Source: Lepidurus packardi (lineage: Eukaryota; Arthropoda; Branchiopoda; Notostraca; Triopsidae). From it: a stretch of DNA of 64,000 nucleotides. Location: the NCBI GenBank assembly GCA_023053545.1, contig JAKZAN010000005.1, positions 10,664,001 to 10,728,000 on the forward strand, written 5' to 3'. Under the pieces are notes generated by a model that saw only the letters and a program-made list of their open reading frames with translations, did not search any database and was not told where the DNA came from. Shown piece by piece: positions 22,404 to 24,495 of this stretch. The position numbers and the translations under genes are program-made. The first letter of the stretch is position 1, and every line of letters begins with the position of its first letter.

Positions 22404-22456
22404 ATGGCAGAAGCGAGTTTTCAAGTACCAGACAATCCGGTAAGAAGAGTTCGTAG
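22388..22456 (+). other. Upstream reading frame overlapping the IRE1-like start codon
   Basis: An ATG at 22388 opens a 22-codon frame that ends with TAG at 22454-22456. It overlaps the start of the IRE1-like protein (22404) in another frame. If the mRNA starts upstream of 22388, this frame would lower translation of the main protein. The transcription start is not visible in the sequence. Confidence 0.4.
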
Positions 22457-24495
22457 AAGAAGCAAACCGAATAGCGAATTTAAGAAAGCAGAGGATATCG
22501 AAGAAATTGGCAAGATTCGCTTCAATCGGAATGATAAACTGGGTGACGGAGTTTTCAGGTTCGGTATCCTTGTCAATGTATTTTTAGTTTATTTATTAAC
22601 GCGATTTTACTTTATTTTAAAACTGTTCAGAGGAATTTTTGAAGAGCGTGAAGTTGCCGTGAAGCGTATACTTATCGAAAACTGTGACCTTTGCCAGCGC
22701 GAACTCGATTTGTTACGGAAATCTGGCGAAGACAAGGCCCACGAAAACGTAGCGCGCTTCTTCTGTTCAGAACAAAACAAGGATTTCTATTTTTTGGCGT
22801 TGGAATTGGGCCAGTGCACAGTGGAGGATTGGTTGCAGACGCCCAAGAAGTTTCTTGGCCTCACAGCTATAGATTCTATTAACTTGCTGAGAGAAATCTC
22901 CGAAGGCGTGCATCATTTACATAACTTACAAATTGGTAATTTTTTCTTTTTTTTCTGAGATCAAATGCGGTTTCCGATAATGCTTGGAACTACAGTTCAC
23001 AGGGATATTAAGCCAACAAATATACTGTTGTCGTATCCTGACAACAAAGGCCATGTTCGGGCTATGGTTACGGATTTTGGTTTATCCAAGAAAATAAAAG
23101 ATTGCAACAATTTTTCGATGTCTGGCGTAAAAGGATCAAAAGGATGGATGGCTCCGGAAGTCCACAATCTGCTAAGAAAAGCGAATAGAAAGATCAATTT
23201 TGTAGGTGGTAAGATCGGTTAAGATATGAAATTTGACGAATTTTCTTTGTTCCTTAGACCTTAGCTGTGGATATATTTTCCTTGGGTTGCGTTTTTTATT
23301 ACGTGCTAAAGCCAAAATGTCATCCATTCGGAGCTGATATTTGGCGTGATGGCAACATAGTCCGCAACGGATATAAGTATAATTACAAACTTAGAGCATA
23401 TATCTAAGGTTGCAATAGAATCCACTACGTTAAGCATAGTTTCTTATATTTATGTATTACTTTCATTTTTATAATAGCGTCAAGGATTTGCCGGATGACC
23501 AACACTTTACAGCCAATGATCTAGTGCGTAGGATGTTAGCCACAAGTCCGGGAGACAGGCCTACTATTTCTGCCGTTTTGAACCACCCTATGTTTTGGAC
23601 CAGTGAACAAATTTTTTCATTTTTTCAGGTAATTTTACTTCCACTTCAATGTGATAGTTGACAGAAATCTGAACAATAAGGATATTATAATTTTTAAGCC
23701 TAACTGGAACGAGTTCTATGCTCACGGACTTGATGAACGGAAACCTTACTTTTGATACGCGATTATGTTTCTTTTTTTTAACTAGATTGTCATGTAATAT
23801 TTAATAATAATAATAATAATGTAGTACTTTTTGAGTTATCACTGAAATCAACTATAGGAAAATAATCTAGTTTTGTGAATTAGGACGCAAGCGACCGTCT
23901 TGAACATGAAAACGGGAAAGAAGCGAGCAGCGCATTAGTTCGCCGTTTAGAACAAGAATCCGCGGCAGTTTTTGGTATTCTGTGGAGTGACAAGATAGGT
24001 TCTACGCTGCTTCAAACCTTGCTGAAGCGCCGCAGTTATAACGCATATTGCGTTAAGGATTTGCTGCGATTAATACGGAATGTGGTAAGAGCGTAATGAA
24101 CTATTGCACCAAAACCTTACATTCACTTTCTTCGTTAGAAAAACCATTACCAGGTTTTGCCTAAGAATGAACAGGAAACATTGGGACCTAACTCGGAAAG
24201 TTACCGTGATTATTTTACAGTGAGGTTTCCAAAACTATTGCTGCAAACATGGCATGTAATGCGTCAGGTCAAAACCGAATCTATCTTCCTGAAGTACTAC
24301 ATCGACGACCAAATCGCCGTAGAAGAAGAACAGAATAGTGGAGACAACCCTGTTATGAGCAAGCTGGTTGCGGCTAAAAAGCCTATTTACAATCCGAAAC
24401 AAAAAAGCCTTTCGAAGCAAAGGAAGGCAAATAGTCTTAAGTCGCCAGCGACTAAAAGGCAAATCCAAATCCTACTGCCTACCAAGGCAGTCTAA
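22404..24495 (+). CDS. IRE1-like soluble kinase-endoribonuclease, no sensor domain
   Basis: Seven exons: 22404-22558, 22631-22935, 22996-23201, 23258-23376, 23478-23628, 23884-24084 and 24139-24495, giving 497 residues. The protein is an IRE1 kinase domain followed by an IRE1-type (KEN) RNase domain, preceded by only about 30 basic residues. There is no signal peptide or membrane segment. Kinase landmarks are VAVKR (beta-3 Lys), the alpha-C Glu in [23 protein letters not shown] and GWMAPEV. The glycine loop is short: LGDGVFRG instead of [13 protein letters not shown] in the neighbouring IRE1. The RNase domain has [18 protein letters not shown], then KNHYQVLP and [12 protein letters not shown]; positions equivalent to human Tyr892, Arg905, Asn906 and His910 are kept, while Lys907 appears as Val. 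A basic Lys/Ser-rich tail of about 65 residues ends it. All shared introns match IRE1 in place and phase. Substrate, regulator and activity are unknown; a cytosolic location is inferred. Confidence 0.88.

What the first reader, a model, noticed from the sequence alone, without database searches (positions are those of the whole stretch)
22404..24495. Soluble IRE1 paralogue: a kinase-KEN RNase with no ER sensor, next to full IRE1
The sequence shows a complete seven-exon gene encoding only the cytosolic half of IRE1. It has a kinase and an RNase domain, but no signal peptide, lumenal domain or membrane helix. The 395 bp before it leaves no room for a lumenal domain. Known IRE1 proteins are ER membrane sensors; the other known kinase-KEN protein, RNase L, is vertebrate and sensed through ankyrin repeats. 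A free-standing version in an arthropod, conserved enough to keep most catalytic motifs, suggests a separate RNA-cleaving pathway, a helper or a dominant-negative partner that heterodimerises with IRE1. I do not know of a description, but I cannot search.
Basis: partly seen in the sequence, partly recalled or inferred. Interest (0 to 1): 0.88.

Follow-up and report, generated by a model that had tools for sequence, protein, structure and literature searches.

The report
Sensor-less IRE1 paralogue in a crustacean
Next to its normal stress-sensor gene IRE1, this small crustacean carries a second, intact-looking gene that keeps only the RNA-cutting half of IRE1 and has no part that reaches the cell's endoplasmic reticulum, which suggests an RNA-cutting enzyme switched on by something other than ER stress.

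Summary
Window 22404-24495 (+) encodes a 497-aa kinase-KEN protein in seven GT-AG exons. It has Pfam kinase and Ribonuc_2-5A domains and no lumenal domain or membrane helix. It lies between a copine gene and a complete 1095-aa IRE1. Its introns match those of the IRE1 kinase-KEN region in position and phase (five whatever the splice choice, six under the preferred one), so it is a DNA-level duplicate of an IRE1. It is not a passive pseudogene: 0 of 300 neutral simulations reached this divergence without a stop. All four RNase catalytic residues remain. Best reading: a soluble RNase uncoupled from ER sensing, activated by self-association or by joining IRE1 clusters. Sensor-less relatives are known (Arabidopsis IRE1C) or present in databases (barnacle, CARD-bearing fish proteins), so this is a new variant of a known kind. 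No close orthologue was listed; expression is untested.

The parts
22404..24495 (+). Gene A: free-standing kinase-KEN (IRE1-like) gene, 7 exons, 497 aa
   Evidence: Spliced open frame, Pfam Pkinase and Ribonuc_2-5A
22404..22558 (+). Exon 1: basic N-terminus, GKIRF strand and shortened glycine loop (LGDG-VFR)
22559..22630 (+). Intron 1, phase 2, weak-looking donor GTTCGG; 72 nt, stop-free in frame, hydrophobic if retained
22631..22935 (+). Exon 2: kinase N-lobe with K599 and E612 equivalents and start of C-lobe
22996..23201 (+). Exon 3: HRD, DFG, activation segment, APE (alternative donor gives end 23208)
23258..23376 (+). Exon 4: kinase C-lobe (alternative acceptor gives start 23265)
23478..23628 (+). 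Exon 5: kinase C-lobe end (NHPMFW) to start of KEN
23884..24084 (+). Exon 6: KEN domain with Y892, R905 and N906 equivalents
24139..24495 (+). Exon 7: KEN domain with H910 equivalent, basic C-terminal tail, stop
24655..24660 (+). AATAAA (poly(A) signal consensus) 160 bp past the stop of gene A; a second one at 24842
   Evidence: consensus match only
24897..29203 (+). Full IRE1 (hydrophobic signal-like start, lumenal beta-propeller, membrane helix, kinase, KEN), 15 exons, 1095 aa
19978..22008 (+). Copine gene (C2 and Copine domains), 3' part; upstream neighbour, ends 395 bp before gene A
   Evidence: Pfam on the frames 19978-20835 and 20863-21582; last frame to 22008 read by eye

Best explanation
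Gene A is a duplicated IRE1 that lost (or never copied) the signal peptide, lumenal sensor and membrane helix. It encodes a soluble cytosolic or nuclear kinase-KEN protein. Shown here: gene structure, ancestry from IRE1, long protein-level constraint, intact KEN catalytic residues, damaged glycine loop. Inferred: the kinase domain serves mainly as a dimerisation and allosteric scaffold with weak or no phosphotransfer. The RNase is switched on when two copies meet, by raised concentration, by a partner binding the basic tails, or by recruitment into IRE1 clusters, and then cuts IRE1-type RNA sites away from, or independently of, the ER membrane. It would thus uncouple IRE1-type RNA decay from ER folding stress, much as sensor-less IRE1C acts apart from the ER stress response in Arabidopsis.
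For: Intact 7-exon frame; introns in the same columns and phases as IRE1, five of six regardless of splice choice, six of six under the preferred one; codon-position identity to IRE1 0.567/0.708/0.354 and dN 0.50 with dS saturated, 0 of 300 neutral simulations stop-free; Y892, R905, N906, H910 kept, four of four, as are W833 and D847, the first four being the catalytic residues named in PMC9472280 (abstract and passages); 23 of 28 near-invariant KEN positions kept; no membrane helix; AATAAA after the stop and a favourable start context; sensor-less IRE1 acting without unfolded-protein sensing is reported for Arabidopsis (PMC6788458, abstract and passages).
Against: K907, K in 38 of 38 comparison rows, is V here, and R898 is K. 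The five-residue glycine-loop deletion and D620G may prevent nucleotide binding or back-to-back dimerisation, which IRE1 needs for RNase action. No close orthologue: none of the 120 hits listed out of 799 is over 45% identical, so conservation in relatives is unshown. No transcript, protein or activity data.
Confidence: 0.5

Rival explanations
1. Gene A is a modulator of IRE1 rather than an independent RNase: it joins IRE1 dimers or clusters through the kinase-KEN face and dampens or redirects their output (dominant-negative or helper).
For: Kinase glycine loop short by five residues, D620G, S724N and K907V would make a catalytically unequal partner; tandem position beside IRE1 could favour co-expression (inference).
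Against: All four RNase catalytic residues and two of three activation-loop serines kept (S726, S729), which a pure inhibitor would not need. That D620 lies in the dimer interface is recalled, not tested; its change could equally weaken pairing with IRE1.
Confidence: 0.25
2. Gene A is unexpressed or recently dying, with no current function.
For: Long branch (1.21, 2.13 and 2.25 changes per column), damaged glycine loop, no close orthologue among listed hits, no transcript data.
Against: No stop or frameshift in 497 codons at 46% protein identity to IRE1; 0 of 300 neutral runs stop-free; codon-position pattern of a coding gene; 82 of 97 near-invariant positions kept (18/23, 41/46, 23/28).
Confidence: 0.1
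3. Intron 1 is retained in a functional isoform, inserting a 24-residue hydrophobic segment and anchoring the protein in a membrane after all.
For: Intron 1 is 72 nt, stop-free and in frame, with a weak-looking donor (GTTCGG), and its best 19-residue hydropathy when translated is 1.96.
Against: The intron sits in the same alignment column and phase as the IRE1 intron; the insert would split the kinase N-lobe; 1 of 14 IRE1 introns is also open and a multiple of three by the same count, and T-rich introns tend to read as hydrophobic residues.
Confidence: 0.05
4. The gene is the second half of a larger gene or an assembly error, and a sensor exon has been missed.
For: No RNA evidence; single assembly.
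Against: Only 395 bp to the copine stop; IRE1 lumenal exons lie downstream, in the wrong order for cis-splicing; in-frame stop 12 bases before the ATG; AATAAA at 24655.
Confidence: 0.03

Closest known systems
IRE1 (ERN1/ERN2), metazoan ER-stress sensor
   Same: Kinase plus KEN RNase, 44% identity to the window's own IRE1 over its kinase-KEN region, introns in the same columns and phases, same four RNase catalytic residues
   Different: No signal peptide, lumenal domain or membrane helix; five residues missing from the glycine loop; D620G, K907V
Arabidopsis IRE1C (sensor-lacking IRE1 of Brassicaceae)
   Same: IRE1-like gene without the sensor domain in a genome with full IRE1 genes; reported functional in development (PMC6788458, abstract and passages)
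   Different: Plant gene; independent origin is inferred, as no Arabidopsis sequence was in the trees; gene position and glycine loop of IRE1C not compared
RNase L
   Same: Soluble kinase-KEN layout
   Different: No ankyrin repeats; gene A keeps the residues of an active kinase apart from the glycine loop. RNase L facts are recalled; no RNase L sequence was compared
Barnacle IRE1-like protein P0116 (Amphibalanus amphitrite, 499 aa)
   Same: Free-standing kinase-KEN of about the same length in a crustacean, no lumenal domain match
   Different: 33% identity over 82% of gene A's protein, glycine loop short by one residue only, very long branch, not grouped with gene A
Fish CARD-kinase-KEN proteins (P0059, P0061, P0071)
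   Same: IRE1-type kinase-KEN without a lumenal domain match in P0059 (the other two by precomputed domains)
   Different: N-terminal CARD (two stretches in P0059); P0059 and P0061 group with vertebrate IRE1, from which P0071 was left out as a long branch

Membership tests
IRE1 ER-stress sensor | Kinase domain followed directly by KEN RNase domain | tested here: met
   Pfam Pkinase 44-301 and Ribonuc_2-5A 308-433
IRE1 ER-stress sensor | Lumenal sensor domain with signal peptide | tested here: not met
   No lumenal match at E up to 0.001; 395 bp of space upstream; only about 35 residues precede the kinase
IRE1 ER-stress sensor | Membrane helix | tested here: not met
   Best 19-residue hydropathy 1.60, in the kinase C-lobe, against 2.71 in IRE1
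IRE1 ER-stress sensor | RNase catalytic residues Y892, R905, N906, H910 | tested here: met
   Four of four kept; residue roles from PMC9472280 passages
IRE1 ER-stress sensor | Active kinase: glycine loop, K599, E612, HRD, N693, DFG | tested here: inconclusive
   All kept except the glycine loop, which lacks five residues
RNase L | N-terminal ankyrin repeats | tested here: not met
   No ankyrin match in gene A at E up to 0.001
RNase L | Activation by 2-5A | not testable with these tools
   No assay possible
Sensor-less IRE1 (IRE1C-like) | IRE1 duplicate lacking the sensor, alongside a full IRE1 | tested here: met
Sensor-less IRE1 (IRE1C-like) | Shared descent with plant IRE1C | not tested
   No plant sequence in the trees; shared introns with the window's IRE1 and one search place gene A with animal IRE1

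The most novel reading that the evidence does not exclude
This lineage has evolved a small family of soluble, IRE1-derived kinase-KEN RNases: gene A with a crippled ATP loop but whole RNase catalytic set, and the more divergent gene on scaffold C6 with a pseudokinase (DFG lost). They would act as a cytosolic RNA-decay arm, for instance against viral or stress RNA, in parallel with RNase L of vertebrates and independently evolved.
Probability: 0.2. Interest if true: 0.78.

Novelty: new variant of a known kind. Interest (0 to 1): 0.5.

Why it matters
IRE1's RNase is normally gated by the ER lumen. A natural animal version without that gate, with an intact RNase catalytic set and a broken ATP loop, is a ready-made test of what IRE1-type RNases need to fire: nucleotide, phosphorylation, membrane or dimerisation alone. 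With sensor-less forms in Brassicaceae, fish and barnacle, it would add to signs that kinase-KEN modules are freed from the ER repeatedly, the route by which RNase L may have arisen (inference).

Tried and rejected
Ankyrin repeats upstream of the third gene (RNase L layout): an upstream frame looked repeat-like to me, but Pfam gave no ankyrin match at E up to 10 for the five upstream frames I gave it; rejected. The 5' end of the third gene was sought in 9.7 kb upstream with IRE1, gene A, Daphnia and Artemia proteins; nothing beyond the known first exon was convincing, so its N-terminus is unknown.

Dating the duplication: residues peculiar to the window's IRE1 are shared by gene A at 3 of 44 positions and by the third gene at 5 of 44. 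For gene A this is no more than for other IRE1s (0 to 6 shared, of 14 to 56, in 14 control groups), so it does not support a recent duplication, although three of these residues (an ELGQ motif and ASD) are common to all three genes. Trees are long-branch limited. Rows were 45 proteins that I chose from 240 fetched, plus the three genes. Gene A and the third gene pair at 96/87 in 48 rows (where the arthropod IRE1s form a clade at 100/100 that leaves gene A out) and at 87/74 in 34 rows (14 rows dropped; the three genes together have support 28/73). Both runs warn that long branches meet. With the third gene and five other rows left out (42 rows), gene A falls among arthropod IRE1s (92/94) and pairing with the window's IRE1 is not rejected (p-AU 0.142). 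Shared rare residues of gene A and the third gene, 21 of 80, equal the highest of 20 other pairs (0.26): inconclusive.

Literature: ten searches of an open-licence library listed no paper whose title or abstract start describes a sensor-less IRE1 in an arthropod; the listings are capped and were read as titles and abstract starts only. Passages were read in PMC3710099, PMC6788458, PMC7914947 and PMC9472280; no whole text was read.

Full report
What is there. Gene A (22404-24495, +) has seven exons: 22404-22558, 22631-22935, 22996-23201, 23258-23376, 23478-23628, 23884-24084 and 24139-24495. All six introns are GT-AG and the frame is open for 497 codons. Intron 3 has an equivalent alternative (23209-23264) that changes two residues; I prefer the version whose position and phase match IRE1. 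Pfam finds Pkinase (E 3.4e-36) and Ribonuc_2-5A (E 3.4e-33) and no lumenal domain. The 16 best PDB sequences are all IRE1 kinase-RNase chains, E 5.9e-93 for the best (4pl3_A). The longest hydrophobic stretch does not resemble a membrane helix. The N-terminus (VRRVRRRSK) and the C-terminal tail are rich in basic residues, which could direct the protein to RNA or the nucleus; this is read from the sequence only.

Surroundings. Upstream is a copine gene (C2 and Copine domains) whose last frame ends 395 bp before the ATG. Downstream, 401 bp past gene A's stop, starts a complete IRE1 of 1095 aa in 15 exons with beta-propeller matches in the lumenal half (PQQ_2 just over its cut-off, Beta-prop_ACSF4 below its cut-off), a membrane helix, kinase and KEN. 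An AATAAA lies at 24655. Since IRE1's lumenal exons lie downstream of gene A, ordinary splicing cannot give gene A a sensor. The window's IRE1 is 67-68% identical to three Daphnia-type rows and 67% to Artemia in the kinase-KEN region, so the organism is probably a branchiopod other than Daphnia (inference).

Origin. Introns of gene A and of the IRE1 kinase-KEN region fall in the same six alignment columns with phases 2,1,0,2,0,0. One of the six, intron 3, matches because I chose that reading; the other five do not depend on it. The third gene shares four of its five modelled introns by column and all five by phase; the fifth lies beside an insertion. Its first modelled exon starts where the remaining IRE1 intron would end. 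The copies are therefore DNA duplicates of an IRE1 gene, not retrocopies. When it happened is not resolved.

Constraint. Against IRE1, 390 aligned codons are 46.4% identical in protein; nucleotide identity is 0.567, 0.708 and 0.354 at codon positions 1, 2 and 3; dN is 0.50 and dS is saturated. In 300 neutral simulations run to the same protein identity (substitutions only, no insertions or deletions) the mean number of stops was 13.3, the minimum 4, and none was stop-free. Gene A was therefore kept as a protein for most of its history. This does not show that it is expressed today.

Active sites. Sites were read from an alignment of 43 rows, in which 38 rows served as the comparison set. That set includes the window's IRE1 and one CARD-bearing fish protein, P0061; five gappy or partial rows were dropped beforehand. 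Gene A keeps K599, E612, HRD, K690, N693, DFG, S726, S729, W833, D847, Y892, R905, N906 and H910. It lacks five residues of the glycine loop and has D620G, S724N and K907V. Of positions at least 95% constant in the comparison set it keeps 18 of 23 in the N-lobe, 41 of 46 in the C-lobe and 23 of 28 in KEN. H910 acts as general base and Y892 as general acid, with R905 and N906 holding the phosphate (PMC9472280, abstract and passages). K907 is the lysine that aldehyde inhibitors attack (PMC7914947, passages), so gene A's protein should resist such drugs (inference).

A third gene. The KEN profile finds three loci in the genome (six exon matches, whose counts are lower bounds): IRE1, gene A, and one at about C6:10557500-10559200 (minus). 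The third, 429 aa as far as modelled, has the DFG aspartate replaced, N693S and Y892L, but keeps R905, N906 and H910. Its 5' end was not found, so whether it too lacks a sensor is open. Searched by itself it gave 7 hits, none over 37% identical.

Relatives elsewhere. Gene A's protein gave 799 hits, of which the best 120 were listed; none of these is over 45% identical and none is named as Daphnia or Artemia, though many carry no name. Proteins over about 870 aa were outside the length limit of that search, so full IRE1s of those genera could not appear. Free-standing kinase-KEN proteins do exist in the database: barnacle P0116 (499 aa), an unnamed P0117 (500 aa) and fish proteins with CARD domains. 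Some short entries may be partial gene models. The HEPN survey reports expansions of KEN domains apart from the kinase in Oikopleura and monocots (PMC3710099, passages). Arabidopsis IRE1C lacks the sensor, does not contribute to the ER stress response, and is needed for male gametophyte development when IRE1A and IRE1B are missing (PMC6788458, abstract and passages).

How it most likely works. Activated IRE1 forms back-to-back dimers, and breaking them costs the RNase activity (PMC7914947, passages). With no lumenal domain, gene A's protein must dimerise by concentration, by a partner, or by entering IRE1 clusters. The intact KEN catalytic set and damaged ATP loop suggest an RNase whose kinase serves as scaffold. 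I give 0.5 to an autonomous sensor-independent RNase, 0.25 to a modulator of IRE1, 0.1 to no current function; the remainder covers the other rivals and unnamed ones.

Verdict. Observation confirmed, interpretation partly supported, and the novelty is that of a new variant: sensor loss in an IRE1 duplicate is known in plants, but no description in an arthropod showed in the listings of ten searches of an open-licence library. The combination of short glycine loop, whole RNase catalytic set, tandem place beside IRE1 and a third, pseudokinase-like paralogue is unusual and testable.

Noticed in passing
Own genome, about C6:10557500-10559200 (minus), loci L007 and L028: A third kinase-KEN gene with lost DFG motif, N693S and Y892L but R905, N906 and H910 kept; four of five modelled introns share IRE1 columns; its 5' end was not found within 9.7 kb upstream.
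   Followed up: partly
Own genome contigs C256, C169, C107 (L029, L030, L031): Small contigs whose kinase genes are open only if TAA and TAG are read as glutamine (10+8, 3+7 and 7+8 such codons, no TGA; frames of 483, 541 and 800 codons against 168, 160 and 243 in the standard code): ciliate-type DNA in the crustacean assembly, perhaps an epibiont. Many other small contigs also show in-frame TAA or TAG but no TGA.
   Followed up: partly
window 22559-22630: Intron 1 of gene A is stop-free, a multiple of three, has a weak-looking donor and would encode a hydrophobic 24-residue segment if retained.
   Followed up: partly
P0059, P0061, P0071 (database proteins): Fish proteins joining CARD domains to an IRE1-type kinase and KEN RNase, which look like an innate-immunity version of IRE1.
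   Followed up: no
L028, bases upstream of the third gene: Fragments that look like a cysteine protease (cathepsin-like) on the strand of the third gene, judged by eye from the frames.
   Followed up: no
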